Positions 30,224 to 61,185 of a stretch of DNA of 64,000 bases are shown in pieces. This DNA comes from Desulfitobacterium metallireducens DSM 15288. GTDB taxonomy: Bacteria > Bacillota > Desulfitobacteriia > Desulfitobacteriales > Desulfitobacteriaceae. The stretch is taken from the NCBI RefSeq assembly GCF_000231405.2, contig NZ_CP007032.1, positions 620,001 to 684,000 of the forward strand, written 5' to 3'. The notes beneath the pieces are model-generated. The model did not search any database. It was not told the DNA's origin and saw nothing but the letters and a program-made list of their open reading frames with translations. Positions within the stretch are counted from its first letter, which is position 1. Each line of letters begins with the position of its first letter. Position numbers and translations under genes: made by a program.

Positions 30224-30226
30224 AAA

Positions 30227-32277: not shown

Positions 32278-32323
32278 AACATCTTACACTCCTTTGATTT
32301 TTACTTGAAAAGGTCTTATTGGG

Positions 32324-32608
32324 TTACCCATAACGGAAGGATATGCCAAAGGTCCCCCTGGGGTAATCCCACTTAAGACCTCTTTTTAAGCAGACGACTC
32401 TGCAGGTTCCGCATTCTAAGCAGCCGGCGTAGTCAAACCGTACGGCCTTATCCTCTTGAACATATAAGCCAGCGGGGCAGGCTTTGACACAAGCTTTATC
32501 TTCACACTTAGCGCAGATATCTTTATCAAGGGTAATATGAGGCATCCCCTCATCAACGGCAAATTTATTGGTTCCCAATCGCTCCTCAATACTAAGCCGT
32601 TTTTTCAT
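32324..32608 (-). CDS. fixX: FixX ferredoxin-like protein, operon 2
   Basis: 94 residues from ATG 32608, which overlaps the fixC stop (ATGA). Cysteine sets CAKCEDKACVKACP and CLECGTCRVVC and the C-terminal YPRGTFGISFRYG match FixX. GGAAGGGAG lies upstream within the fixC end. It acts with FixC to pass electrons from ETF to the quinone pool. Confidence 0.92.
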   Translation of the reverse strand: MKKRLSIEERLGTNKFAVDEGMPHITLDKDICAKCEDKACVKACPAGLYVQEDKAVRFDYAGCLECGTCRVVCLKRGLKWDYPRGTFGISFRYG

Positions 32609-33891: not shown

Positions 33892-33902
33892 ATTATCCTC
33901 CT

Positions 33903-34811: not shown

Positions 34812-34824
34812 TTTGTTACCTCCC

Positions 34825-35598: not shown

Positions 35599-35608
35599 TC
35601 GTTAGTTT

Positions 35609-35650
35609 CCCCTTTCACGGGGGGTGCAGGCTCATGGTGACCTGTACCCC
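35609..35650 (-). promoter_or_regulatory. Switch-like leader before etfB, operon 2
   Basis: On the minus strand, GGGG-ACAGG can pair with CCTG-ACCCC, or the C-run can pair with the downstream GGGG that serves as the etfB ribosome binding site (loop GTGAAA), followed by AAACTAACGA and the ATG. The sequence differs from the operon 1 leader in the loops and some stem bases, but both alternative pairings are kept. Confidence 0.55.
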
Positions 35651-35714
35651 ATCAGCTTATGACTTTTTTCTGAGATTTTGAAAACATACTTAAATTTCAA
35701 CTTAATCCTAAGAG

Positions 35715-36854: not shown

Positions 36855-36911
36855 AAATAATCCTCCTACTATAATTAGATATTCAGATAGGATAGGAATC
36901 TAAGATTGGTT

Positions 36912-38309
36912 CTAAACAAAGTGGAAGATTGAACTTAAACCAATCAAAACAAATACAGTTGCAGATTTAATCAGGGTAATGGCGAAGATATCTTTATAGG
37001 ACTGTTTATGGGTCAGACCGCTAATTGCAAGTAAGGTAATAACCGCGCCGTTGTGAGGCAGGGTATCCATTCCTCCTGAGGCCATAGAAGCAACTCTATG
37101 GAGCAACTGTGGGTTCAAGCCAATTTGATTAGCCCAGGCTAAGTAATCTTTTCCGAACGTTTCTAAGGCAATACTCATACCACCTGAGGCAGATCCAGTA
37201 ACACCCGCTAATACGTTGACCGTAACAGCTTCTGACAACAGCGGGCTGCCACCGCCTTTGATGTTCATCATGGCTTGAGCAATCGTGTGAAAACCCGGTA
37301 AGGTCTTGATCACATTACCAAAGCCTACTTCAGAGGCAGTATTCATAACGGCTAGCAATGAACCGATAGCTCCGGCATTAATCGCTTTGGCAACATTTCC
37401 TTTTATCCGTCCCGGATTGATTAACAGAGCAATGATTACACCGGTTAACAGAGCGATCATTAAAGCCCAGTTATTCATCGTCCCGACGATTCCAGTCTTG
37501 TCCATCTTATAAGGAGCCTGAACGGCCCAAGGGGAAATGTCCCAATAGGGGAAGACAAACTTTTGCAGAATCAAAGTGACGGCCAATACAGTGATCAAGG
37601 GAACAACAGATAAAAGGGGGCTGGGCAAATTTGAATCTTCAACGATCTCCGGCTCTTGAAGAGTGTGGTTACCATACCCTTCTCCATTAGCTTGTGCCTG
37701 GCGCTTCCGCCATTCCAGGTATAACAGCCCGACGGCTAAGACGATAATGGCTCCAAGAGTACCGAATACCGGAGCGGCATAGAGATCTGTATTAAAATAT
37801 TTCATCGGAATTGTATTTTGAATTTGGGGAGTACCGGGTAAGGCATCCATGGTAAAGGTAAAGGCTCCTAACGCTATCGTTCCCGGTAAAAGACGTTTGG
37901 GAATGTTCGCTTCCTTAAATAAAGATGCTCCAAAGGGATAGACCGCAAAGGCTACGACAAACAGGCTTACCCCACCGTAGGTTAGAACAGCACAGGATAA
38001 AACAACGGCCAACATCGCTTGTTTAGCACCCAATCTTTTCACGATGGTCTTAGCAATGGATTTGGCTGCTCCCGATTCTTCCATCGCTTTACCAAATACT
38101 GCCCCTAAAAGAAAGAAGGGGAAATATATTTTGACGTAGTTTGCTAAATTGGGCAAAAATATTTCGGTGTACGTCGGCAGCAGGGCCATTCCTGAGAAAA
38201 CGGCTGCCAATAAGGCAAATACAGGGGCGAAGAATATTACGGAGTAACCTTTGTAAGCGAGAAACATGAGGAGAGCCAAACTAATCAGAATTCCAAGTAC
38301 GCCAAACAT
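36912..38309 (-). CDS. GntP-family permease, operon 2
   Basis: 465 residues, about 12 membrane segments, with the same PGTPQIQNTIPM and ASGGMDTLPHNGAVITLL motifs as the operon 1 permease. It imports or exchanges an organic acid, probably the substrate of the adjacent CoA-transferase. GGAGG is present before the ATG. Confidence 0.85.
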   Translation of the reverse strand: MFGVLGILISLALLMFLAYKGYSVIFFAPVFALLAAVFSGMALLPTYTEIFLPNLANYVKIYFPFFLLGAVFGKAMEESGAAKSIAKTIVKRLGAKQAMLAVVLSCAVLTYGGVSLFVVAFAVYPFGASLFKEANIPKRLLPGTIALGAFTFTMDALPGTPQIQNTIPMKYFNTDLYAAPVFGTLGAIIVLAVGLLYLEWRKRQAQANGEGYGNHTLQEPEIVEDSNLPSPLLSVVPLITVLAVTLILQKFVFPYWDISPWAVQAPYKMDKTGIVGTMNNWALMIALLTGVIIALLINPGRIKGNVAKAINAGAIGSLLAVMNTASEVGFGNVIKTLPGFHTIAQAMMNIKGGGSPLLSEAVTVNVLAGVTGSASGGMSIALETFGKDYLAWANQIGLNPQLLHRVASMASGGMDTLPHNGAVITLLAISGLTHKQSYKDIFAITLIKSATVFVLIGLSSIFHFV

Positions 38310-38329
38310 AGAAAACCTCCTCCAGCTAA

Positions 38330-39892
38330 TTATTTTGCGGCGAGCAGCTGATGCATGTTCATGACTTCAGGACTGAAGATTCTTAAATCCATAACGCGTA
38401 AACTTTGAGATACCCGGGGCTTAAAATCCATCTGGGCTAAAACATCTTTTTCCAGATTGATTCCGGGGGCAATTTCGGTGAGTGTGATGCCTTGAGGTGT
38501 TAGTTCAAAAACTGCACGTTCTGTGATATATAAGACGGGTTGCCGGGTGCTTTGGGCATATTCCCCTGAGAAGGTAATTTGCTCGACTTCTTTGACCAGT
38601 TTCTTAACCTTACCTTCCTGTTCAATTTTAAGCATTCCGCCACTGATCGATGTTTTCAGACCACCGGCGGTAAAAGTACCACAGAAAACGACCTTTTTTG
38701 CGTTTTGGGTGATGTTAATAAACCCGCCGCATCCGGCGATTTTTGGGCCGAATTTACTAACGTTGATATTTCCTCGTTCATCCATTTGGGCTAATCCTAA
38801 AAAGGCTAGATCCAATCCTCCACCATCGTAAAAGTCAAATTGGTAAGGCTGATCCAGGAGGGCTTCTACATTAGTAGATGCTCCAAAGTTTATTCCCCCT
38901 GCAGGTATTCCCCCTACGCCTCCAGCCTCAACAGTTAGGGTCATCTGATCGGCAAAATCTTCTTCATTCGCAACAACGGCCACACCTTCCGGCATTCCAA
39001 TGCCCAGATTCACCACGGCGTTAGGAATGAGTTCCAGAGCAGCGCGTCGGGCTATTATTTTTCGTTCGTCTAAAGGCAGCGGTTTTAAACTCGCCAGCGG
39101 AACTCTAACTTCTCCGCTGAAAGCAGGGTTATAGGGTTCGACAAAGGTTTGCCACTGGACCTCAGGGGATACAACGACAATTGCATCAACCAATATCCCG
39201 GGGACCTTAACCAATTTAGGATCTATACTTCCCGAAGAGACCACGCGCTCAACTTGGGCAATAACAATTCCACCAGAGTTCTTTGCAGCTTGAGCCATGG
39301 AAAGTGTTTCAACCATGACCGCTTCCTTCTCCATACTTAGGTTCCCTTTTTCGTCAGCTGAGGTTGCTCTGATAATGGCTACATCAATGGCTAAACCTTT
39401 GTAGAATAGCATTTCTTCTCCGGCAACGTTGATGACTTCTACTAAGTCTTCCTGAGTTTTGGAATTGAGTTTACCCCCCTGAACTCGAGGATCGACAAAC
39501 GTCTTGAGACCTACCTTGCTGATGGTACCCGGCTTGCCGGCAGCTATATCTCTGACCAGTTGTGCCAACGTACCCTGGGGAAAGTTATAGGCTTCAATTT
39601 TATTTTCAACAGCGAGTTTTACAAGCTTGGGGGCGAGATTCCAGTGACCGCCGATAACCCTGCGCACGAGACCTTCATGACCAAAGTGGCCTGTTCCTTT
39701 ACTCTGTCCGTCACCAATACCCGCACTATAAATTAAGGTCAAATTCTGGGGGTGACCCTCATTTAAAAAATTCTCTTCCAGTTTCGACGTAAGTACTTCG
39801 GCGTGTGCTGCACCCGCGAATCCCGTAACCCCAACAGATACTCCATCACGAATCATTTTTATGGCCTCTGATGCTGTTACAAATTTGGTCAA
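38330..39892 (-). CDS. Acyl-CoA:carboxylate CoA-transferase (fused), operon 2
   Basis: 520 residues, initiated by a TTG (39892) with AAGGGGG nine bases upstream. The catalytic-Glu motif LTVEAGGVGGIPAGG and the N-terminal GVTGFAGAAHAEVL are intact. First gene of operon 2. A GG-N10-GC pair at 39919-39932 upstream is a poor match to sigma-54 consensus outside those bases, so promoter control here may differ from operon 1. Confidence 0.9.
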   Translation of the reverse strand: MTKFVTASEAIKMIRDGVSVGVTGFAGAAHAEVLTSKLEENFLNEGHPQNLTLIYSAGIGDGQSKGTGHFGHEGLVRRVIGGHWNLAPKLVKLAVENKIEAYNFPQGTLAQLVRDIAAGKPGTISKVGLKTFVDPRVQGGKLNSKTQEDLVEVINVAGEEMLFYKGLAIDVAIIRATSADEKGNLSMEKEAVMVETLSMAQAAKNSGGIVIAQVERVVSSGSIDPKLVKVPGILVDAIVVVSPEVQWQTFVEPYNPAFSGEVRVPLASLKPLPLDERKIIARRAALELIPNAVVNLGIGMPEGVAVVANEEDFADQMTLTVEAGGVGGIPAGGINFGASTNVEALLDQPYQFDFYDGGGLDLAFLGLAQMDERGNINVSKFGPKIAGCGGFINITQNAKKVVFCGTFTAGGLKTSISGGMLKIEQEGKVKKLVKEVEQITFSGEYAQSTRQPVLYITERAVFELTPQGITLTEIAPGINLEKDVLAQMDFKPRVSQSLRVMDLRIFSPEVMNMHQLLAAK

Positions 39893-43344: not shown

Positions 43345-43385
43345 AAGTGTATTGATTTTTTTAATTCTTAATGTTATTGTATTAG

Positions 43386-43655
43386 TACACCAATGATGGG
43401 GAAGTAAAACCGGAGAACGACCTTAAAGAGAGCCGAGATGGGTGGAAACTCGGTAGGAACGGATCGGACAAGTGGACCCCTGAGGGCAAAGCGAAAAGGC
43501 TTAATGGCTTGAGTAGCTATTGACGCAAAGCCAGCGTTATAGGGCTAAGGGTGTGATGGCACTCTGCAAGTGAATGCATTTAGATGCATTAATTAAGGTG
43601 GTACCGCAGGTATAATTACGCCTGTCCTTTTATCTAAGGACAGGCGTTTTTTATT
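43386..43655 (+). promoter_or_regulatory. T-box riboswitch, tryptophan specifier
   Basis: A full-length T-box leader. Stem I region with AGAGAGCC and GGGTGGAAACTCGG, a specifier codon TGG at 43473-43475 followed by ACCCCTGAGG, the T-box bulge sequence TGGTACCGC (43599-43607), and a terminator CGCCTGTCC / GGACAGGCG with a T-run (to about 43653). Uncharged tRNA-Trp would favour the antiterminator and switch on the TrpX-like gene. Confidence 0.92.
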
Positions 43656-46787: not shown

Positions 46788-47624
46788 ATGAGTGAATTAA
46801 GACGTAAGATGAAGGCAGATATGGAACTCAAGGGATATAGTCCAAGGACTCTTAGTTCCTACATTAAGAGGGTCGCAGGATTTGCCAATTACTTTGGGAA
46901 ATCTCCGAATGACTTGGGCGAAGATGAGATAAAAGAATATCTTCATCATCTGATAACTCTCCCAAGAAGTGATTCCTATATCAACGGTGCTTATAGTGCC
47001 TTGAAGTTTTTGTATCAGGTAACATTGCAGAGAGAATGGAGCAGTCTTAGGATTCCAAGAACAAAGATGCGTAAGAGACTTCCGGAGGTACTCGCTACTT
47101 CTGAAATAAAAGAACTTTTAAAAGCCACATCGAACCTAAAGCATCGTACACTGTTAATGACAATTTATGCGGCTGGACTAAGAGTAAGTGAAGCTGCAAA
47201 TCTCAAAGTGAATGATATAGATAGTAGACGTATGGTTATTAGAGTAAGACAAGGGAAAGGTAATAAAGATCGCTATACCCTCTTGTCTGAAGTAAATCTA
47301 TCCTTACTTCGGACCTATTGGAAAGCATATCAACCCCAAATATGGCTATTTCCTGGAGTTACATCAGATAAACCCATTACAACACGAACGATTCAAAAAG
47401 TATTTCAAACGAGCAAAGAAAAAGCCAAGATCACGAAGAATGTTTCCGTACATTCCTTAAGGCATAGTTTTGCCACCCATCTATTAGAGTCTGGGACAGA
47501 CATCTACCATATCCAAAGACTGATGGGACATAGTTCAACAAAAACAACCTCCATATATATTCACCTTAAACAAGAGAATATGCTCAAGATAAAAAGTCCA
47601 ATTGATATTTGGAATTTCCAATGA
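46788..47624 (+). CDS. Tyrosine recombinase (IS91-associated integrase)
   Basis: 278 residues. An N-terminal SAM-like core-binding domain (ELKGYSPRTLSSYIKRVAGFANYF) is followed by a catalytic domain with Arg in YAAGLRVSEAANLKVNDID, Lys in VRQGKGNKDRYTLL, HSLRHSFATHLLESG (H-x-x-R), His in MGHSSTKTT and the nucleophile Tyr in SIYIHL. At 278 residues it is shorter than IntI integrases, and I see no IntI-specific insert. It overlaps the transposase gene by 16 bases. It is the only tyrosine recombinase in the window and lies 1.4 kb before the cassette array, so a role in cassette movement is possible but unproven. Confidence 0.88.
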   Translation: MSELRRKMKADMELKGYSPRTLSSYIKRVAGFANYFGKSPNDLGEDEIKEYLHHLITLPRSDSYINGAYSALKFLYQVTLQREWSSLRIPRTKMRKRLPEVLATSEIKELLKATSNLKHRTLLMTIYAAGLRVSEAANLKVNDIDSRRMVIRVRQGKGNKDRYTLLSEVNLSLLRTYWKAYQPQIWLFPGVTSDKPITTRTIQKVFQTSKEKAKITKNVSVHSLRHSFATHLLESGTDIYHIQRLMGHSSTKTTSIYIHLKQENMLKIKSPIDIWNFQ

Positions 47625-48796
47625 CCGAAGTGGCCGATATATTTAGAGAGTTCGGACCCAAGTATCGAAAAGCCCATAAACTGACCCAGCATACACATAA
47701 GGTTATGAATGCAATTGAACGTTGTCGAACATCCGCTATGGGTGGTCATGTTGAAGAGTGCGATACGTGTGGACACATTAAAATCTCATATAATTCATGC
47801 CGTAATAGACATTGCCCAAAATGTCAGGGGTTAGCACGTGAAAAATGGCTATTAGCCAGAGAAAGAGACTTGCTCCCCGTTGGCTACTTTCATATCGTCT
47901 TTACCGTTCCTAACGATTTAAATGCTTTTGCCTTAAGAAACCAGAAGGAGATTTATACGCTTCTTTTTAAAGCATCATCAGAAACACTCATGGAATTAGG
48001 AAAGGACTCCAAATATTTAGGGGCAGAAATCGGTCATATTTCAATACTACACACCTGGGGTCAAAACCTGATGGATCACCCTCATGTGCATTGTATTGTA
48101 CCGGCAGGCGGGCTGTCCTTAGACGGAGAAAGATGGATTCATTCACGAAAGAATTTCTTCATTCCGATTAAAGTAATTTCGCGGGTTTACCGTGGAAAAT
48201 TCATGGCGTATTTTAAAGAAGCTTGCCAAAAAGGGAAGATTAAATTTGAGGGTGAACTTCAAAGATTTGTGAATACAGAAGAACTTAAAGTTCTAGTAAA
48301 CGCGCTATACCAGAAGGAATGGATTGTTTATTGTAAAGAACCGTTTAGTAACCCAATGAAGGTCATGGAATATCTAGGGCGCTATACTCATCGCGTCGCT
48401 ATATCCAATGAGAGAATCATAGGAATTAAGAAGGGTCGAGTAAGCTTTAAGTGGAAGGACTATGCAGATCAGAATAAACATAAAACGATGGAGTTAGAGG
48501 GTGAGGAATTTATACGTCGATTTTTATTGCACGTATTACCGCTTAAATTTGTTAAGATCAGGCATTATGGAATTCTCAGTAATCGAAGTAGAAATATAAA
48601 ACTAACAAGATGTCAGGATATATTTGAAATTAAAAAAGAGAAGCGAGCAGAGACAAAGCATACCTGGGAAGAGTTACTTCTGCAGATTAAGGGTATAGAT
48701 GTTCGAAGTTGCCCAATCTGTCATAAGGGTAAAATGATTAAAAAGGAACTTATATTGCCTAAGGCCTATTCTCCACCAACAAAGTCTATTGCTTAA
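47609..48796 (+). CDS. IS91-family transposase (Y2, HUH)
   Basis: 395 residues. N-terminal zinc-binding region HVEECDTCGHIKISYNSCRNRHCPKCQG, the HUH motif in HPHVHCIVPAGGLS, and two catalytic tyrosines in YLGRYTHRVAIS (spaced by three residues, the Y2 form of IS91 rather than single-Tyr ISCR). IS91 elements move by rolling circle and can mobilise adjacent DNA. A second cysteine pair CPIC lies near the C-terminus. The frame is intact, so it could be active. Confidence 0.92.
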   Translation: MEFPMTEVADIFREFGPKYRKAHKLTQHTHKVMNAIERCRTSAMGGHVEECDTCGHIKISYNSCRNRHCPKCQGLAREKWLLARERDLLPVGYFHIVFTVPNDLNAFALRNQKEIYTLLFKASSETLMELGKDSKYLGAEIGHISILHTWGQNLMDHPHVHCIVPAGGLSLDGERWIHSRKNFFIPIKVISRVYRGKFMAYFKEACQKGKIKFEGELQRFVNTEELKVLVNALYQKEWIVYCKEPFSNPMKVMEYLGRYTHRVAISNERIIGIKKGRVSFKWKDYADQNKHKTMELEGEEFIRRFLLHVLPLKFVKIRHYGILSNRSRNIKLTRCQDIFEIKKEKRAETKHTWEELLLQIKGIDVRSCPICHKGKMIKKELILPKAYSPPTKSIA

Positions 48797-50325: not shown

Positions 50326-50376
50326 AGCGCCGTCCATGGCGCTGTCTGAGTCACGGGGCACGATACGTCGTAGAAA
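50326..50376 (+). repeat. attC-like site E, left half, split by IS110
   Basis: A left hairpin AGCGCC/GGCGCT with loop GTCCAT (50326-50343), then GCACGATACGTCGTAGAA ending at an R''-like GTAGAA (50370-50375), where the IS110 copy begins. The other half is site F at 51978. The sequence pairs with the start of the same cassette after site D (17 of 18). Confidence 0.75.
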
Positions 50377-50510
50377 CCAGCTAATTGCTGTCAAGGAAAA
50401 GTTTCTTTAGACTAACGTTGAGAAAAATAGGGTATAGCAAAGCTGGCCTACATAATGTAAGCTCAAAAAAACATGTAAATAAAAGGGATTTCTAAGTCTG
50501 CAGAGAATTG

Positions 50511-51725
50511 TTATTTAGAACCAGAAAAAGGCCGTTGTGAGGATAGAATCCCATAGATCATCCTTAGCATTTTGTTAGCCGTGGCTATTATGGCGACCTT
50601 AGCCGGTTTACCTTCGTTTAATTTACGAACATAAAAGTCTCTGAGAATTGGGTTTAAGGGGCCGCCTGTTCTATTGCTGATCCCAGCCACAGTGGCCTGG
50701 TAGAGCGCTTTTCTAAGATAGGGTGACCCTCTCTTGGATATCTTGTTATGACTCGATTTAAACTTTCCCGATTGAAAGACAGAAGGGTCAATGCCTGCAA
50801 AAGCGACCAGCTGTTTTGAGCTCGGGAATCTCTTAATATCACCAATTTCAGCGAGAATGGTGGTGGCTGTAGCCTCTCCTACGCCAGGAATTGAACGGAG
50901 AAGAGGATAATCCGGGGAAAAGTTTGCCCAATAGACCATTTGAGCCCGTATATCGGTCAGAACGTTTTGTTGGGATACGAGGAGGTTAATATACATCCTT
51001 AAAACCCGTATGTTAGACTGTTGGGCGCGGTTAGAAGGCAAACTTTCCTGGGCAGCTAATATAAGTTCATCCGTTTTAAGCTCGTACCAGCTTTTAGACT
51101 TCTTCGCAGGTTTAAGACATTCGATAATCTGGTCTCGGCTAGCCGATAAAATAGCTGTTGGTGAAGGAAAAGAAGAAAGAATGCTTAAAGCAGTAGGGCT
51201 ACATAAGTGAGCAAACACCGATTCAAACTTCGGAAACAGAAGGTCTAAAACAGATTGGAACCGAAGCTGAGTTTCAGTATATAACGTATTGAAACCATCA
51301 TATTGGCGGCAAAGGTTCTGTAACTCTAGGATATGCTCTTCAAGAGGTTTGGCCTCGGTAAACTGATTTAAATAGTAAACCTGGGCAATCCGATTCGTAT
51401 CAATAGGGTCAGTCTTAACCTTGCGAACGGATTTCTTTTTCTCAGCGTGAGTTTGGAGAGGATTTAGAACAACAACCTTATAACCCGCATCTTGAAAGTA
51501 AGCCGAAATCGGCTTGGAGTAGTTACCCGTGGCTTCCATAACCACGTGAGGACGTTTACCGGTTTCACATTCTAGTTTAATTAGCCTCTCAGTTAATCGA
51601 GACATATCACGAGGTGAATGGGAGAAAGAAAAGGGTTTGGTCAGTGATTCCTGATAACGTTTAAATAAAGTAGCCACACTCTTAGACTTAGAAACATCAA
51701 TGCTTAGAACAGGAACATCAATCAT
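50511..51725 (-). CDS. IS110-family transposase (attC-targeting copy 1)
   Basis: 404 residues. DEDD domain: LSIDVSKSKS (Asp), VVMEATGNYS (Glu), KTDPIDTNRIAQ (two Asp). Transposase_20 domain: LRSIPGVGEATATTILAEIGD and FAGIDPSVFQSGKFKSSHNKISKRG with the catalytic-type Ser. GGGAGG is near the ATG. It is identical at protein level to the second copy at 57075-58289, so recent transposition or recombination is likely. Confidence 0.92.
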   Translation of the reverse strand: MIDVPVLSIDVSKSKSVATLFKRYQESLTKPFSFSHSPRDMSRLTERLIKLECETGKRPHVVMEATGNYSKPISAYFQDAGYKVVVLNPLQTHAEKKKSVRKVKTDPIDTNRIAQVYYLNQFTEAKPLEEHILELQNLCRQYDGFNTLYTETQLRFQSVLDLLFPKFESVFAHLCSPTALSILSSFPSPTAILSASRDQIIECLKPAKKSKSWYELKTDELILAAQESLPSNRAQQSNIRVLRMYINLLVSQQNVLTDIRAQMVYWANFSPDYPLLRSIPGVGEATATTILAEIGDIKRFPSSKQLVAFAGIDPSVFQSGKFKSSHNKISKRGSPYLRKALYQATVAGISNRTGGPLNPILRDFYVRKLNEGKPAKVAIIATANKMLRMIYGILSSQRPFSGSK

Positions 51726-51727
51726 GG

Positions 51728-51970
51728 AAAACCTCCCTTTTTACCGGGTTCCGTCTTTAAACAACCACCCTTAGGTTCGCATTGTGATACGGGCTCAAGG
51801 CCCAACCAGCTCAATCAAGGTATTGGAGTTAAAGAAGGCTTGAACAGTTTATACGACGGGATCAAGGTCCCAACAGCGCGTACGTTCTTTACCCAGTTTT
51901 CTTCAGTATAAAGGAACACAAAAGAAAAAAGTCCATACCCAGATTGAACTGGTTATGAACCTATAATACG
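51728..51970 (-). ncRNA. Candidate bridge-RNA region of the IS110 element (copy 1)
   Basis: About 240 non-coding bases upstream of the transposase gene with several internal complementarities (for example CGGGCTCAAGGCCCAA and GGGATCAAGGTCCC near 51788-51872). IS110 elements with a long end before the transposase encode a structured bridge RNA there that pairs with target and donor. Assignment here is by position and structure only. The same sequence is at 58292-58534 in copy 2. Confidence 0.4.
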
Positions 51971-51977
51971 AACAGCA

Positions 51978-52080
51978 GGTTCCCGCCACTTAGAACAAGA
52001 TGGATGTGGTTAGGACGCAGCGGGAACCTGCGGAACGTTATCGGACATTTCCTGCAGGACCGCCCGCCGTCCATGGCGGG
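51978..52080 (+). repeat. attC-like site F, right half, split by IS110
   Basis: Inner arms GGTTCCCGC and GCGGGAACC with the CACTTAGA...GATGGATG core, R' GTTATCG (52037-52043), and a right hairpin CCCGCC/GGCGGG with loop GTCCAT (52063-52080). The R'' side is site E, 1.6 kb away across the IS110 copy. Confidence 0.75.
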
Positions 52081-52131
52081 GTTAAGTAGGAGAAGAAGTA
52101 TAAATCGAGTTACTATTTGGAGGAATTTTGA

Positions 52132-52684: not shown

Positions 52685-52802
52685 GCGCCGTCCATGGCGC
52701 TCTGGCTTCGTGGGGCAGGAAACGTCAGATAACAGAGGATTACCGTAACTTTGCCAAGATGAATGTGGCAATGGCGCTACGGTAATCCTCGGGACGTTAT
52801 AT
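52685..52802 (+). repeat. attC-like cassette site G
   Basis: A left hairpin GCGCC/GGCGC with loop GTCCAT (52685-52700), R'' AGATAAC (52727-52733), inner arms GATTACCGTA and TACGGTAATC, and R' GTTATAT (52796-52802). No right GTCCAT hairpin. Confidence 0.75.
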
Positions 52803-52843
52803 GTCATTACGCTATCGGAGTGGAATTTGGGGAGGTTTATTTT

Positions 52844-53656
52844 TTGGGAGCTAAGCTCATGTCCCGAAGAGCATTTATCGTAGGTGGGATTGCAACATTA
52901 TCCTATCTATATTTCGATCTTCATTCTATTGCAGTAAAACGATATACCATTGCGGTTTCTAGACTACCAAGTGATTTTCGGGGGTTCACTATTCTCCATT
53001 TAACTGATTTGCATAATAAGGAATACGGAGAGGGTCAAAGGCATCTACTAGAGTTGATTAACCGACTGCACTTTGATGCAGTTGCAATTACAGGTGATTT
53101 AGTCGATAAGAGTAGCCCTAATATTGAACCAGCAATAGCATTGGTTAAAGGGTTACAATCTAAACCTATATTTTTTGTTCCGGGAAATCATGAGTGGTGG
53201 ACAAACTTCCAAATCAAATCACCATTGGAGGACCATGGCGTACGAATATTGGAAAATGGGAGTTTCAAATATGCTAGGGGCAATTTTCATCTATGGATAA
53301 TTGGTGTTGACGACCCTTATCTCGGAAGAGATAAGTTAGATAAGGCGCTTTCAGGAATCGTGGATTCTGTACCCAAGGTTTTATTAGCGCATGCACCAAA
53401 CATTTTTTCCAAAGCCGTTGAAAGTAATCTCGATTTAATTTTGGTGGGGCATACGCACGGTGGACAAGTTAGACTTCCATTAGTTGGTGCAGTGATTGCA
53501 CCCGGGCAAGGGCTTTTTCCTAAATTAGATTATGGCCAATTTACTTCTGGTACTACAAATATGATTATCAATGGTGGTTTAGGGGAAAGCGTTTTACCAA
53601 TAAGATTTTACAATAGACCGGAAATTGTTTTAGTGACGTTAGTTACCTCTAGCTAG
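52844..53656 (+). CDS. Metallophosphoesterase, YkuE-like, with Tat signal (cassette gene)
   Basis: 270 residues from TTG 52844 (GGAGG eight bases upstream). ATG 52859 is an alternative, and the longer frame from 52763 would run through the attC-like site. The N-terminal SRRAFIVGGIATLSYLY resembles a twin-arginine signal. Calcineurin-like motifs are complete: LTDLHNK, ITGDLVD, VPGNHEWW, LAHAPN and VGHTHGGQVRLP. It probably acts outside the membrane on phosphodiester or phospholipid substrates. One gene between sites G and H. Confidence 0.88.
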   Translation: MGAKLMSRRAFIVGGIATLSYLYFDLHSIAVKRYTIAVSRLPSDFRGFTILHLTDLHNKEYGEGQRHLLELINRLHFDAVAITGDLVDKSSPNIEPAIALVKGLQSKPIFFVPGNHEWWTNFQIKSPLEDHGVRILENGSFKYARGNFHLWIIGVDDPYLGRDKLDKALSGIVDSVPKVLLAHAPNIFSKAVESNLDLILVGHTHGGQVRLPLVGAVIAPGQGLFPKLDYGQFTSGTTNMIINGGLGESVLPIRFYNRPEIVLVTLVTSS

Positions 53657-53677
53657 CCTTGTGGGAGGCGTAACGAC

Positions 53678-53786
53678 ATATAACACAGTGTTCCCGCAAC
53701 TAGAGGATGATGCATGCGGTTGGGACACTGCGGGAACACAAAAACGTTATACGAAACCGTACGCAAGGCCGCGCGTCCATGCGCGG
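53678..53786 (+). repeat. attC-like cassette site H
   Basis: R'' ATATAAC (53678-53684), inner arms GTGTTCCCGCA and TGCGGGAACAC with the core ACTAGAGGATGATGCATG, R' GTTATAC (53746-53752), and a right hairpin CCGCGC/GCGCGG with loop GTCCAT (53769-53786). No left hairpin. Confidence 0.75.
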
Positions 53787-53875
53787 ACGTCCATGAATCT
53801 CCATTTAGTCGTACTTCGCGTTAACATAAATTATGCGAAACGATGATTACAAGATGAACACGAAGGAGTGGTACA

Positions 53876-54328
53876 ATGAATATTATATCGATCAAAGAAA
53901 ACCCAAAATATAAGGACAAAGCAATTCAATATTTTCAAAGCAAGTGGGCTAATGAAGGTAGTTTAATGGTATATGAGGACTGTATTACTAATTGCATAAC
54001 AACAACTAATCCTTTGCCACAGTGGTATTTGTTAGAGCATGATGGAGATATTATTGGCTGTGCAGGACTTATTACCAATGATTTCATTAGTAGAATGGAT
54101 CTGTATCCTTGGGTTTGTGCTGTATTTATTGAAGAAAAATATCGTGGCAATGCTTTTGGATCATTGTTACTGGATAAGGCAAAGAAAGATGCAAAGCAGG
54201 GTGGTTTTTCCCATTTGTATCTTTGCACCGACCATATTGGATATTATGAAAAATATGGTTTTAGCTATATTGGACAAGGCTACCACCCTTGGGGAGAAAG
54301 TTCCCGGATTTATGTAGCAGATTTATAG
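53876..54328 (+). CDS. GNAT-family N-acetyltransferase (cassette gene)
   Basis: 150 residues, GAAGGAG seven bases before the ATG. Motif A: PWVCAVFIEEKYRGNAFGSLLLDKAKKDA; motif B: LYLCTDHIGYYEKYGFSYIGQGYHPWGE, typical of small GNATs. The acceptor is unknown. It is the third GNAT gene among the cassettes, consistent with the known abundance of acetyltransferases in integron cassettes. Confidence 0.88.
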   Translation: MNIISIKENPKYKDKAIQYFQSKWANEGSLMVYEDCITNCITTTNPLPQWYLLEHDGDIIGCAGLITNDFISRMDLYPWVCAVFIEEKYRGNAFGSLLLDKAKKDAKQGGFSHLYLCTDHIGYYEKYGFSYIGQGYHPWGESSRIYVADL

Positions 54329-54369
54329 GATTTGGTTCTAAGCAGTTAGGTCTTTCAAGTGATCCAGGG

Positions 54370-54571
54370 GGCCGCCGTCCATGGCGGCCTCTGCATTCGG
54401 GGGCGTACGGCATCGGATAACAGCTAATTAACGACATTGCCTTTGTCACGGCATTTGCAGTTTCAAGAAGGATTCAGAGGCAAATGCCGCGCCAATCCCT
54501 ACGGGCCGGCAACGTCGGTAATTCGCAGGACGTTATCCGAAACCGAACGCAGGGACGCGCGTCCATGCGCG
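54370..54571 (+). repeat. attC-like cassette site I (long type)
   Basis: A left hairpin GGCCGCC/GGCGGCC with loop GTCCAT (54370-54389), R'' GGATAAC (54415-54421), R' GTTATCC (54532-54538; exact complement of R''), and a right hairpin CGCGC/GCGCG with loop GTCCAT (54556-54571). The 124-bp core holds nested arms: CGACATTGCC with GGCAACGTCG outside, GGCATTTGC with GCAAATGCC inside. Length and branching recall Vibrio VCR sites. Confidence 0.8.
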
Positions 54572-54676
54572 GATTTTTGGGGAATGGCTTTGTAGCTATT
54601 TCATATTAGTATTTTATTGAGTATAAATGGGATAGGGTATAAAAAGAAAGTTTAAAAGTATTGGGGATGGGTTTAA

Positions 54677-55204
54677 ATGAATTTAAAGCCAATTGGCATT
54701 TCCGCATTACTGATATTAATAATTTTCTTGCTATATAATACTGTGGGAGTTGGTATAGCTACACTTATATTTGCAATAATCTTTTTGGTTCAGGCTATCT
54801 TATTTAGCATTAAACCAGACTACTACGATAAGTTTTTAAGCTTTATGAATCCAGGATTATATAGTGCATACAGTGAAAAAGGTAGTGACTTCATCAAGAA
54901 AAAGCGAAGGATGAATATAATAGGTTATTACGTCCTTTCTGCTATCACAGGATTTAATGCATTCCTGCAAATAAGGTTAATGACAAGAATAGATACAAGA
55001 CCTTTATTTAATATGAGGGAACTTTTACTCTTTGCACTAGTAATTTTGGGCTTAATTTTTTTAACAAATTATATTTCCATTTTAACAATGAAGAAGGCCA
55101 AAACTGCTAATGAGGATTTAGCGTGGAATATTATTTTAGGAATTGCATTTGCTATTATTTTGCTTGGCTTTATAAGTTTTTATATTTTACGACCAATAAT
55201 CTGA
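54677..55204 (+). CDS. Membrane protein of unknown function (cassette gene)
   Basis: 175 residues with about five transmembrane segments (roughly residues 7-24, 27-45, 85-102, 112-135 and 150-171) and a basic loop DFIKKKRRMN between the second and third. No family recognised. The ATG follows GGGGATGGG at a short distance, so the start is moderately certain. One gene between sites I and J. Confidence 0.65.
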   Translation: MNLKPIGISALLILIIFLLYNTVGVGIATLIFAIIFLVQAILFSIKPDYYDKFLSFMNPGLYSAYSEKGSDFIKKKRRMNIIGYYVLSAITGFNAFLQIRLMTRIDTRPLFNMRELLLFALVILGLIFLTNYISILTMKKAKTANEDLAWNIILGIAFAIILLGFISFYILRPII

Positions 55205-55271
55205 GATTCGCTACCAGTTTTGGCGTAATAGTTAGTCGGGATATTCTCATGTTATACAGTTTGCTTCAAAG

Positions 55272-55472
55272 GGCCGCCGTCCATGGCGACCTCTGAATCT
55301 GGGGGCGTACGGCATCGGAACAGAGTATTCCCTACATTGCCTTTGTCACGGCATTTGCAATTATGGCCGGGGAAGTAAGTGGCAAATGCCGCGCCAACCC
55401 TACGGGACGGCAACGTCGGGAATACTCAGGACGTTATACGAAACCGTACGCAAGGTCGCGCGTCCATGCGCG
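55272..55472 (+). repeat. attC-like cassette site J (long type)
   Basis: A left hairpin GGCCGCC/GGCGACC (one mismatch) with loop GTCCAT (55272-55291), a degenerate R'' GGAAC (55317-55321, lacking TA), an inner 123-bp core related to site I (GGCATTTGC / GCAAATGCC), R' GTTATAC (55433-55439), and a right hairpin CGCGC/GCGCG with loop GTCCAT (55457-55472). Confidence 0.78.
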
Positions 55473-55573
55473 GATTTATTGAGAAAAGACGTTGTAGTAA
55501 TATACTAATACTAAGGTTAACCTCAGCAGAGAAATCCTAAAAGAAATATTTTTTATGAATAGAGGTAAGCGGA

Positions 55574-55783
55574 ATGTCAGTAACAGATTTTCGAGCGGCT
55601 CAAAAATGGTCAAAACTATCCCAGGATTTAAAGCATAGGCTTCTAGGAAATGTATTTTGTTCGAGTTGCGGAGTGACCACTATCGTTGATTACACTTTAC
55701 ACGATGATAAATCTGGCATCCTAATTAAGGGTAAATGCAATAAATGTGGTATGGATGTAGCTAGGCTTGTTGAGGATGAATAA
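55574..55783 (+). CDS. Small zinc-ribbon protein (cassette gene)
   Basis: 69 residues. Two CxxC knuckles (VFCSSCGVTT and CNKCGMDVARL) separated by a beta hairpin (IVDYTLHDDKSGILIKGK) form a single zinc ribbon. No enzymatic motif. The end overlaps by eight bases the probable start (ATGAATAA) of the following interrupted gene, so the two are likely translationally coupled within one cassette. Confidence 0.7.
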   Translation: MSVTDFRAAQKWSKLSQDLKHRLLGNVFCSSCGVTTIVDYTLHDDKSGILIKGKCNKCGMDVARLVEDE

Positions 55784-56204
55784 ACCAAGAAAACTTATGC
55801 TTAATAAGAATTACATACCATCGATAACTAGCGAAGATGATGAAATTTTTTAAAATGGAATTTTTAAATTTAACATTTCAAGGATAATGGAGCATATCAT
55901 CACTGGAAAGTTAGATGCGGAAAAAGAATTAGTTAATATTCCCGAATGGTTCGAGATGCATAACTACAATGTTGTTAATGAGGATCACTTACCATCAGCT
56001 GATATAACAAAGCCCGTTATACAAGCAGAAATTCGACCAGGCATTTTTCAAATAATTGATGGAAACCACCGGGTAGAAAAGGCGTACCGTGATAAAGTTG
56101 ACTATATAAAATCATATAAACTTAAAGGTGAGCAGCTTATAGCATATTTTATTGATGTCCGAGGATGTAAAGCATTTATAGAGTATTGGAATTCAAAACT
56201 TTAA
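55776..56204 (+). pseudogene. ParB-like (DGNHR-motif) gene interrupted by an in-frame TAA
   Basis: A single frame runs from ATG 55776 (MNKPRKLMLNKNYIPSITSE...) to 56204, with one in-frame TAA at 55851-55853 between DDEIF and NGIFKFNIS, both protein-like. The downstream part (from ATG 55887, 105 residues) contains IIDGNHRVEKAYRD, a ParB/sulfiredoxin-like motif. A single-base change (for example AAA to TAA) would explain it. Alternatives are internal reinitiation at 55887 or readthrough. Second gene of the cassette between sites J and K. Confidence 0.6.
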
Positions 56205-56224
56205 TTCCCGTAATCGGCATAAGG

Positions 56225-56378
56225 GGCCGCCGTCCATGGCGGTCTCTGGCTTCGTGGGGCGCACGGCATCGTATAACACAGCATTCCCGACACTTGACAA
56301 TATGAAAGTAGAATGACGCGTCGGGAATGCTTAAACGTTATCCGAAACCGTACGCAAAGACCGCGCGTCCATGCGCGG
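56225..56378 (+). repeat. attC-like cassette site K
   Basis: A left hairpin GGCCGCC/GGCGGTC with loop GTCCAT (56225-56244), R'' GTATAAC (56271-56277), inner arms GCATTCCCGAC and GTCGGGAATGC, R' GTTATCC (56337-56343), and a right hairpin CCGCGC/GCGCGG with loop GTCCAT (56361-56378). A complete, symmetrical example of the family. Confidence 0.8.
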
Positions 56379-56460
56379 AGCATTGGAAGTTAAGATAAGT
56401 ATGTTGACTTCATAATCTAACATGAGAAGTGTTTTGGTATTGGATTATAGGGAGGATAAG

Positions 56461-56865
56461 ATGGAAACTGAAGCATTAATTCTAGAAAAACTTCATCAAC
56501 TAGAAGAACGCTTACTGCGACCAGAAATTCGTAGTTCTAAGGAAGAGCTAATGATTCTTCTTGCAGATGACTTTGTTGAGTTCGGAAGTTCGGGACGTAT
56601 ATTTTACAAACAACAGATTACTGAAGCATTAACACATAGCTTAACGGAACATATGAAATTAATGGATTTCCAAGTAAAAATTTTGGCATCGGATGTAGTA
56701 TTAACAACTTTTCGTGTAGTAAAGCCTAATGAACCAAGAGAAGCAATGAGAAATTCATTACGAAGCTCGATCTGGAAGTTTTTCGATGATAGATGGCAAA
56801 TGGTTTTTCATCAAGGAACGCCCCAACAATGGAACACATTATGTAAATTTAGTAATTATACGTAA
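56461..56865 (+). CDS. DUF4440/NTF2-like protein (cassette gene)
   Basis: 134 residues from ATG 56461 (GGGAGG seven bases upstream). NTF2-like fold pattern: N-terminal helix EKLHQLEERLL, LMILLADDFVEFGSSGRIFYKQQITEAL, and strands VVLTTFRVVKPN and SSIWKFFDDRWQMVFHQGTP. Members of this group bind or modify small molecules; the function is unknown. One gene between sites K and L. Confidence 0.8.
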   Translation: METEALILEKLHQLEERLLRPEIRSSKEELMILLADDFVEFGSSGRIFYKQQITEALTHSLTEHMKLMDFQVKILASDVVLTTFRVVKPNEPREAMRNSLRSSIWKFFDDRWQMVFHQGTPQQWNTLCKFSNYT

Positions 56866-56890
56866 TCAACCTATTACGGAGGTTCAAGGG

Positions 56891-56940
56891 GCCGCCTTCC
56901 ATGGCGGCTTCTGAATCTGGGGCGTAAGGCATCGGATAAA
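56891..56940 (+). repeat. attC-like site L, left half, split by IS110
   Basis: A left hairpin GCCGCC/GGCGGC with loop TTCCAT (56891-56908), then GCGTAAGGCATCGGATAA ending in R'' GGATAA(A) at 56934-56940, where the second IS110 copy starts. It pairs with the start of the same cassette after site K (15 of 18). Confidence 0.75.
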
Positions 56941-58541
56941 CCAGCTAATTGCTGTCAAGGAAAAGTTTCTTTAGACTAACGTTGAGAAAAATAGGGTATA
57001 GCAAAGCTGGCCTACATAATGTAAGCTCAAAAAAACATGTAAATAAAAGGGATTTCTAAGTCTGCAGAGAATTGTTATTTAGAACCAGAAAAAGGCCGTT
57101 GTGAGGATAGAATCCCATAGATCATCCTTAGCATTTTGTTAGCCGTGGCTATTATGGCGACCTTAGCCGGTTTACCTTCGTTTAATTTACGAACATAAAA
57201 GTCTCTGAGAATTGGGTTTAAGGGGCCGCCTGTTCTATTGCTGATCCCAGCCACAGTGGCCTGGTAGAGCGCTTTTCTAAGATAGGGTGACCCTCTCTTG
57301 GATATCTTGTTATGACTCGATTTAAACTTTCCCGATTGAAAGACAGAAGGGTCAATGCCTGCAAAAGCGACCAGCTGTTTTGAGCTCGGGAATCTCTTAA
57401 TATCACCAATTTCAGCGAGAATGGTGGTGGCTGTAGCCTCTCCTACGCCAGGAATTGAACGGAGAAGAGGATAATCCGGGGAAAAGTTTGCCCAATAGAC
57501 CATTTGAGCCCGTATATCGGTCAGAACGTTTTGTTGGGATACGAGGAGGTTAATATACATCCTTAAAACCCGTATGTTAGACTGTTGGGCGCGGTTAGAA
57601 GGCAAACTTTCCTGGGCAGCTAATATAAGTTCATCCGTTTTAAGCTCGTACCAGCTTTTAGACTTCTTCGCAGGTTTAAGACATTCGATAATCTGGTCTC
57701 GGCTAGCCGATAAAATAGCTGTTGGTGAAGGAAAAGAAGAAAGAATGCTTAAAGCAGTAGGGCTACATAAGTGAGCAAACACCGATTCAAACTTCGGAAA
57801 CAGAAGGTCTAAAACAGATTGGAACCGAAGCTGAGTTTCAGTATATAACGTATTGAAACCATCATATTGGCGGCAAAGGTTCTGTAACTCTAGGATATGC
57901 TCTTCAAGAGGTTTGGCCTCGGTAAACTGATTTAAATAGTAAACCTGGGCAATCCGATTCGTATCAATAGGGTCAGTCTTAACCTTGCGAACGGATTTCT
58001 TTTTCTCAGCGTGAGTTTGGAGAGGATTTAGAACAACAACCTTATAACCCGCATCTTGAAAGTAAGCCGAAATCGGCTTGGAGTAGTTACCCGTGGCTTC
58101 CATAACCACGTGAGGACGTTTACCGGTTTCACATTCTAGTTTAATTAGCCTCTCAGTTAATCGAGACATATCACGAGGTGAATGGGAGAAAGAAAAGGGT
58201 TTGGTCAGTGATTCCTGATAACGTTTAAATAAAGTAGCCACACTCTTAGACTTAGAAACATCAATGCTTAGAACAGGAACATCAATCATGGAAAACCTCC
58301 CTTTTTACCGGGTTCCGTCTTTAAACAACCACCCTTAGGTTCGCATTGTGATACGGGCTCAAGGCCCAACCAGCTCAATCAAGGTATTGGAGTTAAAGAA
58401 GGCTTGAACAGTTTATACGACGGGATCAAGGTCCCAACAGCGCGTACGTTCTTTACCCAGTTTTCTTCAGTATAAAGGAACACAAAAGAAAAAAGTCCAT
58501 ACCCAGATTGAACTGGTTATGAACCTATAATACGAACAGCA
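56938..58541 (-). mobile_element. IS110-family element inserted in an attC-like site (copy 2)
   Basis: Same 1604 bp as copy 1, at a constant offset of 6564 bases, in the same orientation and at the same position in its attC-like site. Direct copies flanking seven cassette genes could recombine and delete or circularise the segment 51978-58541. Confidence 0.85.
57075..58289 (-). CDS. IS110-family transposase (attC-targeting copy 2)
   Basis: 404 residues, identical to the protein encoded at 50511-51725, with the same DEDD (LSIDVSKSKS, MEATGNYS, KTDPIDTN) and Transposase_20 (SGKFKSSHNKISKRG) motifs. The intact frame indicates both copies could be active. Confidence 0.92.
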   Translation of the reverse strand: MIDVPVLSIDVSKSKSVATLFKRYQESLTKPFSFSHSPRDMSRLTERLIKLECETGKRPHVVMEATGNYSKPISAYFQDAGYKVVVLNPLQTHAEKKKSVRKVKTDPIDTNRIAQVYYLNQFTEAKPLEEHILELQNLCRQYDGFNTLYTETQLRFQSVLDLLFPKFESVFAHLCSPTALSILSSFPSPTAILSASRDQIIECLKPAKKSKSWYELKTDELILAAQESLPSNRAQQSNIRVLRMYINLLVSQQNVLTDIRAQMVYWANFSPDYPLLRSIPGVGEATATTILAEIGDIKRFPSSKQLVAFAGIDPSVFQSGKFKSSHNKISKRGSPYLRKALYQATVAGISNRTGGPLNPILRDFYVRKLNEGKPAKVAIIATANKMLRMIYGILSSQRPFSGSK

Positions 58542-58643
58542 AGTTCCCGCCACTTAGAGGATGATGCAAGTAGTCAGGGTGCAGCGGGAACCTGCGAAAC
58601 GTTCTACGACATATCGTGCAAGGCCGCGCCGTCAATGGCGCGG
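58542..58643 (+). repeat. attC-like site M, right half, split by IS110
   Basis: Inner arms GTTCCCGC and GCGGGAAC with the CACTTAGA...GATGATGCAAG core, R' GTTCTAC (58601-58607), and a right hairpin CCGCGCC/GGCGCGG with loop GTCAAT (58624-58643). About 76 bases from R' onward match the bases after site D with three differences. Confidence 0.75.
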
Positions 58644-59785: not shown

Positions 59786-59979
59786 ACTTATAATAAGGGA
59801 AAATGGCCTGGCGTATTGCGCATTTGGATTTCGCATCCGTAGAAAAATCAGCCAGCCATCCCCTTGTTATGAGCATTCGGTTAAGCAGGTTGAAACCAGT
59901 GAGGCTTTCGTGTAACTAACCAATATGAATGGGTAATAAGCGAGGATGGATGCCAAACACAAATATTTGGAGGAGTAGG

Positions 59980-61185
59980 ATGATCAGCGTAGGGATTGAT
60001 GTTTCAAAGGGGAAAAGTACAGTTTGTTTTATGAAGCCATATGGAGAGACGTTGCATAGGCCATTTGAAGTGAAACATACGGAAAGTGACTTGAAACACC
60101 TGGTAAATCAGATTAAAACTCTAACAGAGGAAGCCCGTGTTGTCATGGAATCGACTGGAGCCTATCACTTTCCGGTATTAACCTATCTGAAAGAACATGG
60201 TATTTTTGTCACTGTTGTTAATCCGTTAGTCATGCACAAGTATGTAAATGTGGCCATTCGTAAAGGTAAGACAGATAAACTAGATGCCATTAAGATAGCG
60301 AATTTTGGTTTGGATCACTGGTTTCATCTTGTAGACTACACGCCAACGGCAGATGTGTATGATGAATTAAAAACGCTTAATCGACAATACTTAAACTACT
60401 TGTCTATGCGTATCCAGGCGAAACTAACGCTGACAAATCTTCTGGATCGAACAATGTCGGGGATTAAAACTCTCCTTTGGAATCGCTCTGATGCACCGGA
60501 ACGGGATAAGTTATGTCACTTTGTTAATGAATATTGGCATTTTGACAGCATTACGTGTATGCCCGAGGATCAATTTATCGACAACTATAATGAATGGGCA
60601 AAAAGTAAAGGATACCGAGCCAGTACGAAGAAAGCGAAGAAAATCTACGCTCTTGCACTGGATGGCATCCCCACTTTGTCTTCCAATACGCCATCGACCA
60701 AAATGCTCGTAAAGGAAGCCGTTAAGGTCTTGCAAATGATAGACACGACCCTTGTCAGTATTCTAGCACGCATGAGAGAATTGGCAAAGTCTTTGAAGGA
60801 ATATGAGGTCGTCATGTCAATGCCCGGAGTGGGTGAGATACTTGGCCCAAGGCTTATTGCAGAAATAGGAGATGTTCGACGTTTTCATAGTGCCGGAGCA
60901 TTGATTGCTTTTGCCGGTCTCGATGCACCACCGTTTCAGTCAGGCAACTTCACTGGTACAAAGCGAAGTATATCTAAACGTGGTTCGTCTTCCTTACGTA
61001 AAACGGGATATGAAATAATGACCTATATAAAGATTCATAAGCCGTCTGAAGATAATGCAGTTTACCTTTATATGCTCAAGAAAGAAACCGAAGGGAAACC
61101 TAAAAAAGTTGCTAAAATCGCTGCGTTAAATAAGTTTCTACGGATTTACTATGCCAGAGTGAAGGAGATATACGCGGAAACATAA
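59980..61185 (+). CDS. IS110-family transposase (third type)
   Basis: 401 residues from ATG 59980 (GGAGGAG upstream; the frame extending to 59929 has no binding site). DEDD: VGIDVSKGKS, VVMESTGAYHF, KTDKLDAIKIANF. Transposase_20: VMSMPGVGEILGPRLIAEIGDV and FAGLDAPPFQSGNFTGTKRSISKRGSS. Distinct in sequence from the other two IS110 types in the window. The flanks (about 59790-59979 and 61186-61330) should hold the element ends, which I could not define. Confidence 0.9.
   Translation: MISVGIDVSKGKSTVCFMKPYGETLHRPFEVKHTESDLKHLVNQIKTLTEEARVVMESTGAYHFPVLTYLKEHGIFVTVVNPLVMHKYVNVAIRKGKTDKLDAIKIANFGLDHWFHLVDYTPTADVYDELKTLNRQYLNYLSMRIQAKLTLTNLLDRTMSGIKTLLWNRSDAPERDKLCHFVNEYWHFDSITCMPEDQFIDNYNEWAKSKGYRASTKKAKKIYALALDGIPTLSSNTPSTKMLVKEAVKVLQMIDTTLVSILARMRELAKSLKEYEVVMSMPGVGEILGPRLIAEIGDVRRFHSAGALIAFAGLDAPPFQSGNFTGTKRSISKRGSSSLRKTGYEIMTYIKIHKPSEDNAVYLYMLKKETEGKPKKVAKIAALNKFLRIYYARVKEIYAET

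What the first reader, a model, noticed from the sequence alone, without database searches (positions are those of the whole stretch)
51728..51970. Candidate bridge RNA of the attC-targeting IS110 element
The longer non-coding end precedes the transposase gene and contains several G/C-rich complementary segments. In IS110 elements this is where the bridge RNA is made. If its target loop matches the R'' to core junction, the attC specificity would be explained.
Basis: inference. Interest (0 to 1): 0.5.

Follow-up and report, generated by a model that had tools for sequence, protein, structure and literature searches.

The report
Guide RNA aiming element at attC
A jumping gene in a clostridial bacterium carries, just ahead of its transposase gene, a structured guide RNA whose variable loop matches the recombination sites into which it and its sister copies have jumped, which would account for its choice of site.

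Summary
Window 51972-51726 (minus strand) is the left end of an IS110-group element inserted in the R'' end of an attC-like site. A second copy (58536-56938) has the same RNA over the 240 bases compared. Two 84%-identical copies in the genome and relatives in other clostridia supply the comparison.

The region reads as a bridge RNA: 5' stem-loop, target-binding loop, donor-binding loop. 98.6% of cells are paired, 8 of 32 pairs changed on both sides, 0 of 500 shuffles reach the covariation score. The loop's 5' side copies the left target; its 3' side is complementary to the right target. Left guides match their own targets better (5.2 of 6) than other lineages' targets (2.2; permutation p about 1e-5; own best or tied in 9 of 9 intact loops); the right guide's signal is weak (p 0.011). 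Of 8 further RNA-model hits, 5 have readable attC-like junctions, each matching 5 of 6. Joined ends would rebuild a TTGACA-17-TATTAT promoter.

Mechanism known; attC targeting is known for IS1111-family elements and, in what I searched, unreported for the upstream-RNA IS110 group. Expression and activity are untested.

The parts
51971..51972 (-). TT core at the left junction
   Evidence: boundary between conserved left end and varying flank in 19 elements; coordinates
51971..51980 (-). left target, ACCTGCTGTT: arm of the attC-like site next to the core
51971..52043 (+). remaining attC-like hairpin (from the split R'' to R' GTTATC)
   Evidence: left flank W1 pairs 10 of 10 in the arm beside an AAC box, 0 of 200 shuffles as good; sequence
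51963..51968 (-). -10 TATTAT of the junction promoter
   Evidence: coordinates
51931..51960 (-). 5' stem-loop of the bridge RNA, followed by a T run
   Evidence: 11 pairs, 98.6% of cells paired, one pair changed on both sides
51836..51894 (-). target-binding stem-loop
51872..51881 (-). left target guide ACGCGCTGTT (same sense as the left target)
51858..51871 (-). apical hairpin of the target loop, GGGACC..GATCCC
   Evidence: A-U to G-C change on both sides in 3 of 13 sequences
51849..51858 (-). [quoted passage not shown]
   Evidence: 9 of 10 with TTCTACGACG; weak covariation, p 0.011
51769..51820 (-). donor-binding stem-loop
   Evidence: outer stem: 4 of 5 pairs changed on both sides
51804..51811 (-). 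left donor guide AGCTGGTT (matches the right end of the element)
   Evidence: best match in the donor loop in 17 of 19 elements
51791..51803 (-). apical hairpin of the donor loop, GGGC..GCCC
   Evidence: C-G, A-U and U-A at one pair
51776..51783 (-). right donor guide AATGCGAA (pairs with TTCGTATT, one G-T)
   Evidence: best position in the donor loop in 12 of 19 elements
50511..51725 (-). IS110 transposase, 404 aa (DEDD_Tnp_IS110 plus Transposase_20)
50389..50394 (-). -35 TTGACA in the right end
   Evidence: coordinates
50374..50376 (-). TTT at the right junction (core TT plus one further T)
50366..50375 (-). right target TTCTACGACG (rest of R'' and cassette end)
56938..58536 (-). second copy of the element with its core bases, in another attC-like site, same RNA over the 240 bases compared

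Best explanation
The region is the bridge RNA of an IS110-group element. When the element leaves as a circle, its right end (-35 TTGACA) and left end (-10 TATTAT) meet and make a promoter that reads the left end. The RNA folds into a 5' stem-loop, a target-binding loop and a donor-binding loop. [quoted passage not shown] the donor loop does the same with the joined ends. The DEDD/Ser transposase then exchanges strands at the TT core. Because the left guide reads the variable attC arm, each lineage is aimed at a subset of attC-like sites, and at R'' rather than R'. Shown: anatomy, conserved structure, joint variation of guide and target, and a promoter-like junction sequence. Inferred from IS621 and ISEc21: transcription, binding, circle, catalysis.
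For: 19 elements aligned at both ends; 18 of 19 left flanks end in TG-TT. Structure with covariation. Left guide best or tied at the same loop position in 17 of 17 elements, G91a and G261 left out beforehand. Permutation over 9 intact loops: left guide own 5.2 of 6, others 2.2, p about 1e-5, own best or tied in 9 of 9; with the two decayed copies 4.98 against 2.56, p about 1e-5, 7 of 11; right guide 5.79 against 5.28 of 8, p 0.011. Further RNA-model hits with readable junctions: 5 of 8, each 5 of 6, at or above which lie at most 1% of 500 background TGTT contexts. In the own genome the O-type guide gives its two occupied sites rank 1 of 27 each, the W-type guide ranks its sites 3 and 4 of 27, and both guides prefer R'' to R' in 23 of 26 candidate sites. 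Joined ends score 11 of 12 as a sigma-70-like promoter in 19 of 19, spacer 17 in 17 of 19; left ends in place score 7-9 in 18 of 19. Order of guides (bottom-strand match first) is the IS110 order of Siddiquee 2024 (section 12 of PMC11187229). Protein matches ISCro4 and IS621 structures, E 4.9e-27 and 4.9e-25.
Against: No expression, binding or transposition data. The single-sequence minimum-energy fold pairs the 5' stem-loop with the donor loop rather than giving the bridge fold. Right-guide covariation is weak, own best in only 3 of 9, and G64a pairs 2.5 of 8 on the right. The W guide is only moderate (4 of 6; 10 of 26 unoccupied candidates have a left part as good; ranks 5 and 12 of 100 in the looser list). 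Right donor guide is not the best match in 7 of 19. Three of the five further elements share a guide with a lineage already used, so only two guides are new; the left junction of G449 cannot be read, and the weak hits G145 and G263 do not show an attC-like target. The right junction has TTT in 17 of 19 where empty sites have TT.
Confidence: 0.93

Rival explanations
1. The transposase recognises the folded attC hairpin or its conserved core by protein contacts, and the RNA is structural or regulatory only.
For: 18 of 25 left flanks show an attC-like inverted arm, so shape is shared by the targets; right-hand guide covariation is weak.
Against: Shape does not predict that left guides match their own lineage's targets and not those of others, nor that the O guide places its two occupied sites first among 27. 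Seven of 25 left flanks show no such arm under the test used. IS110 elements studied elsewhere use RNA guides.
Confidence: 0.04
2. The upstream region is a leader or attenuator of the transposase gene (terminator-like 5' hairpin followed by T run), and similarity to the target is coincidental.
For: A hairpin followed by a run of T lies right after the left end.
Against: The match is at the same place in 17 of 17 elements, with joint change of guide and target. A leader role may coexist with a guide role.
Confidence: 0.02
3. IS1111-attC type element with its guide RNA at the other end.
For: Same kind of target (IS1111-family ISKpn4, ISPst6 and ISPa25 target attC; passages of PMC11187229).
Against: Longer non-coding end upstream, guide order of the IS110 type, no 11-13 bp subterminal inverted repeat found.
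Confidence: 0.01

Closest known systems
IS621 bridge RNA (IS110 group; Durrant 2024, PMC11208160: outline, passages and section 6 seen)
   Same: Left-end RNA, 5' stem-loop plus two loops, first loop variable and second conserved, 5' side of each loop pairing with the bottom strand and 3' side with the top strand, promoter rebuilt at the joined ends, IS110 transposase.
   Different: Transposase 404 aa against 328 in the structure entry. Core TT (CT in IS621 is recalled). Right-guide pairing spans up to 10 nt here; the paper gives four to seven. Target is attC-like.
ISEc21 seekRNA (IS110 family; Siddiquee 2024, PMC11187229: passages and section 12 seen)
   Same: Upstream non-coding region, bottom-strand match 5' of top-strand match, circle with junction promoter, a natural case of changed guide and changed target (ISMch6).
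   Different: ISEc21 targets a linear site in IS3-family transposase genes; here the target is one end of attC-like hairpins and several guide variants occur within single genomes.
IS1111-family attC elements (ISKpn4, ISPst6, ISPa25; Tetu and Holmes 2008 and Post and Hall 2009 seen only as references)
   Different: Those carry the RNA downstream of the transposase gene, with the reverse guide order and subterminal inverted repeats; shared target probably arose separately (inference).

Membership tests
IS110 family, IS110 group (bridge RNA) | DEDD_Tnp_IS110 plus Transposase_20 protein | tested here: met
   Pfam 96.4 and 99.5 bits, NCBIfam NF033542 235.9 bits over cut-off 140
IS110 family, IS110 group (bridge RNA) | Longer non-coding end upstream of the transposase gene | tested here: met
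   about 245 bases upstream, about 135 downstream
IS110 family, IS110 group (bridge RNA) | RNA of 5' stem-loop and two loop-bearing stem-loops, conserved by compensatory change | tested here: met
   the single-sequence fold differs
IS110 family, IS110 group (bridge RNA) | Target loop: 5' side matches the left target, 3' side complementary to the right target | tested here: met
   left clear, right weak
IS110 family, IS110 group (bridge RNA) | Donor loop guides matching both element ends | tested here: inconclusive
   left donor guide best in 17 of 19, right donor guide in 12 of 19; ends too conserved for covariation
IS110 family, IS110 group (bridge RNA) | Promoter rebuilt at the joined ends | tested here: met
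   11 of 12 consensus bases in 19 of 19; sequence only
IS110 family, IS110 group (bridge RNA) | RNA expressed, bound by the transposase and needed for insertion | not testable with these tools
   needs the bench
IS1111 family (IS1111-attC) | Subterminal inverted repeats of 11-13 bp | tested here: not met
   best repeat found between the ends of W1 was 7 bp, low complexity; an imperfect AACCAG/CTGGTT similarity is seen by eye at unequal distances
IS1111 family (IS1111-attC) | Longer non-coding end and RNA downstream; top-strand match first | tested here: not met
Integron attC site (the target) | R''/R' boxes around inverted arms | tested here: met
   18 of 25 left flanks pair 9 or 10 of 10 beside an AAC box; 7 do not
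Integron attC site (the target) | Integron integrase in the genome | tested here: not met
   0 of 10 genomes over the TIGR02249 cut-off; no control genome was over it either, so sensitivity to diverged integrases is not shown

The most novel reading that the evidence does not exclude
An IS110-group lineage has evolved, separately from the IS1111-attC elements, a bridge RNA that reads the variable arm of attC rather than only its conserved core, and its guide keeps changing in step with the attC variants at hand: several guide types sit side by side in single genomes (W and O in the window's genome, two in G064, two in G091), each at sites that match it. Guide exchange between copies, and even movement of copies with a dead transposase gene served in trans, could be part of this (G25p1 and G25p2 share the same lesions but differ in RNA and site).
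Probability: 0.4. Interest if true: 0.65.

Novelty: new member of a known kind. Interest (0 to 1): 0.5.

Why it matters
It explains by a readable guide why these elements sit at one end of attC-like sites. Since the arm of attC varies from cassette to cassette, the family is a natural series of guide-target pairs in which the rules and the evolution of bridge-RNA retargeting can be tested. It also suggests that RNA-guided attC targeting arose in both branches of the family. The mechanism itself is known, which limits the surprise.

Tried and rejected
Rfam: no bridge-RNA family matched; over 51600-52100 only snoR35 and SgrS far under their gathering scores. Taken as absence of a family from the library.

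Folding one sequence: gives a strong fold (z -4.43) but not the bridge fold, so the structure rests on the alignment.

Single long alignment A1: the extra G in G25a pushed a gap through the outer target stem; A2 was made without G25a and G25p2 and used for the count. G261 was left out of the alignments because most of its RNA's 5' half is deleted.

Exact boundary: a TT core fits the left junctions, but the right junction carries TTT in 17 of 19 and TT in G261 and G64a. I could not decide whether a T belongs to the element or to the exchange.

attC arm test: the first version wrongly left out the last 60 bases, where these short sites have their second arm, and found almost nothing; one search corrected this.

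Occupied-site ranking: the looser site list (96 unoccupied, many plainly not attC) ranks the O sites 1 and 2 and the W sites 5 and 12 of 100; the stricter list (26, a few still doubtful) gives 1, 1, 3 and 4 of 27. I rely on neither for W.

Other IS110 elements of the window (59929-61185 and 2526-3809) were looked at for attC-like flanks by eye only and not pursued. No relative over 60% identity in the plasmid collection (59 records).

Literature: searches list no paper whose title or abstract start describes an upstream-RNA IS110 element aimed at attC; of the listed papers only PMC11187229 and PMC11208160 were opened, in part. PMC2447020 is not held.

Full report
What was checked. The transposase gene lies at 51725-50511 on the minus strand and the protein is an IS110 transposase, with the IS621 and ISCro4 structures as solved relatives. 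The genome holds a second nearly identical copy in the window and two more at 84% DNA identity. Relatives of 53-88% protein identity came from genome searches: the 100 nearest genomes (62 of 100 with any match at E 0.001 or better), 73 of the order (5 of 73 at E 1e-70) and 398 of the phylum (13 of 398 at E 1e-70).

Ends. In 19 elements with both ends readable, the left end starts [C/A]GTATNATA right after TT, and 18 of 19 left flanks end in TG-TT; the exception, G91a, sits directly behind the right end of another copy. The right end reads TTAGCTGG or CTAGCTGG, then T's, then the rest of the target. In cassette orientation the insertion is in the R'' box. Eighteen of 25 left flanks show the inverted arm of an attC-like site, 9 or 10 of 10 paired beside an AAC box; G91a, G91b, G137, G091:C25, G091:C18, G029:C216 and G449:C16 do not under this test.

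Structure. The 13-sequence alignment A2 supports a 5' stem-loop, a target-binding stem-loop with an apical GGGA/TCCC-type hairpin and a donor-binding stem-loop with a GGGC/GCCC-type hairpin: 98.6% of 415 cells paired, 8 of 32 pairs with changes on both sides, covariation score 0.219 against 0.107 in shuffles (0 of 500), slid structures at most 54.7% paired; the number of further pair types is no higher than in shuffles. Related sequences can exceed shuffles without structure, so the changes on both sides at single pairs (for example A-U to G-C in the outer target stem, and C-G, A-U, U-A in the donor hairpin) carry the weight.

Guides. I slid each element's RNA along its own targets without choosing a place. 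For 17 elements (G261, RNA deleted, and G91a, tandem, left out beforehand) the best left match fell at the 5' side of the target loop in 15 and tied there in 2; the best right match fell at the 3' side in 12, tied in 3, and elsewhere in G64a and G64b. Over nine intact guide types the left guide matched its own lineage's targets at 5.2 of 6 positions and those of others at 2.2; 1 of 200,000 permutations reached this; own was best or tied in 9 of 9. With the decayed copies G25p1 and G25p2 it was 4.98 against 2.56, 7 of 11. The right guide: 5.79 against 5.28 of 8, p 0.011, own best or tied in 3 of 9. Exact ten-base matches include the O type (ATGCCGTGTT, two sites), G64a (ATTCGCTGTT) and G131 (CAATCGTGTT).

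Further elements. A covariance model of the two loops found matches in 5 of 82 genomes of the class and 10 of 398 of the phylum. Eight hits had not been used for the model or the permutation. Five have a readable left junction and each guide matches its target at 5 of 6 (G091:C25, G091:C18, G064:C68, G029:C216, G431:C66); at most 1% of 500 background TGTT contexts do as well. Three of these guides are the same as in lineages already counted, and some other lineages' targets match them as well (1, 0, 3, 4 and 3 of 15), so they add two new guides rather than five. G449:C16 has an unreadable left junction; the weak hits G145 and G263 (54.8 and 40.9 bits) keep donor-like features but no recognisable attC-like target.

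Choice within the own array. Among 26 candidate attC-like sites of the fetched regions plus the occupied one, the O guide ranks each of its two occupied sites first; the W guide ranks its own third and fourth, with 10 of 26 unoccupied sites as good on the left part. Both guides score R'' above R' in 23 of 26, which fits the insertion at R'' only.

Promoter. Joining right and left ends gives two hexamers with 11 of 12 consensus bases in 19 of 19, spacer 17 in 17 of 19 (15 in G64a, 16 in G261); in place the left end scores 7-9 in 18 of 19 and 11 in the tandem copy G91a.

Known or new. Durrant 2024 (PMC11208160, outline, passages and section 6) and Siddiquee 2024 (PMC11187229, passages and section 12) describe the mechanism and, in the latter, IS1111-family elements that target attC with a downstream RNA. 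Here the RNA is upstream with the IS110 guide order. I found no account of an upstream-RNA IS110 element aimed at attC in searches, of whose papers only these two were opened. Filed as a new member of a known kind.

Limits. Everything is sequence comparison. The array has no integrase over the integron model's cut-off in any of ten genomes, with no positive control, so I call the sites attC-like.

Noticed in passing
G025:C1 about 2351.4k and 2357.6k (L081, L082): Two copies share the same lesions in the transposase gene (a 1-base and a 139-base deletion, a 1-base insertion and a stop at codon 208); coding 99.7% and downstream 100% identical, yet the RNA region only 96.0%, and they lie in different attC-like sites with different guides. 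Either a dead copy moved in trans or the coding part was converted. Their RNAs still score 143.1 and 141.1 bits.
   Followed up: partly
right ends of O3, G12, G25d, G25p1: The outward -35 TTGACA of the right end meets TATGAT of the flank at 16 bases (11 of 12 consensus bases) in 4 of 19 elements: a possible outward promoter running against the preceding cassette gene.
   Followed up: partly
window 50374-50376 and 56938-56940: Right junctions carry TTT in 17 of 19 elements where empty sites have TT. Unexplained extra T.
   Followed up: partly
L016 (G091:C37), left end: A copy sits tandem behind another right end, giving a standing TTGACG-16-TATAAT promoter and a junction with only two T.
   Followed up: no
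window 46788-48796: XerA-like tyrosine recombinase followed by and overlapping an IS91-family transposase; the recombinase is the best integron-integrase-like hit of the genome but under the cut-off (187.4 against 265 bits). What recombines the cassettes is open.
   Followed up: partly
window 375-1192 and 52700-58600, and G000:C1 about 411-440 kb: Cassette-like array with attC-like sites, GCCGCCGTCCATGGCGGC-type hairpins beside them and small + strand genes such as acetyltransferases.
   Followed up: partly
window 59929-61185 (+) and 2526-3809 (-): Two further IS110-family transposases of other subfamilies; targets not worked out.
   Followed up: no
window 22123-31051 and 31858-39892: Two similar gene clusters in opposite orientation (CoA transferase, transporter, acyl-CoA dehydrogenase, electron-transfer flavoproteins, oxidoreductase), by eye from the translations.
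   Followed up: no
window 43384-43632 (+): T-box leader (95.7 bits) ahead of an ABC-type substrate-binding protein gene at 43750.
   Followed up: no
window 51931-51960 and 51804-51820: The 5' stem-loop can pair instead with the donor loop (AACCAGUUCAAUC with GAUUGAGCUGGUU) in the minimum-energy fold: possibly a switch, untested.
   Followed up: no
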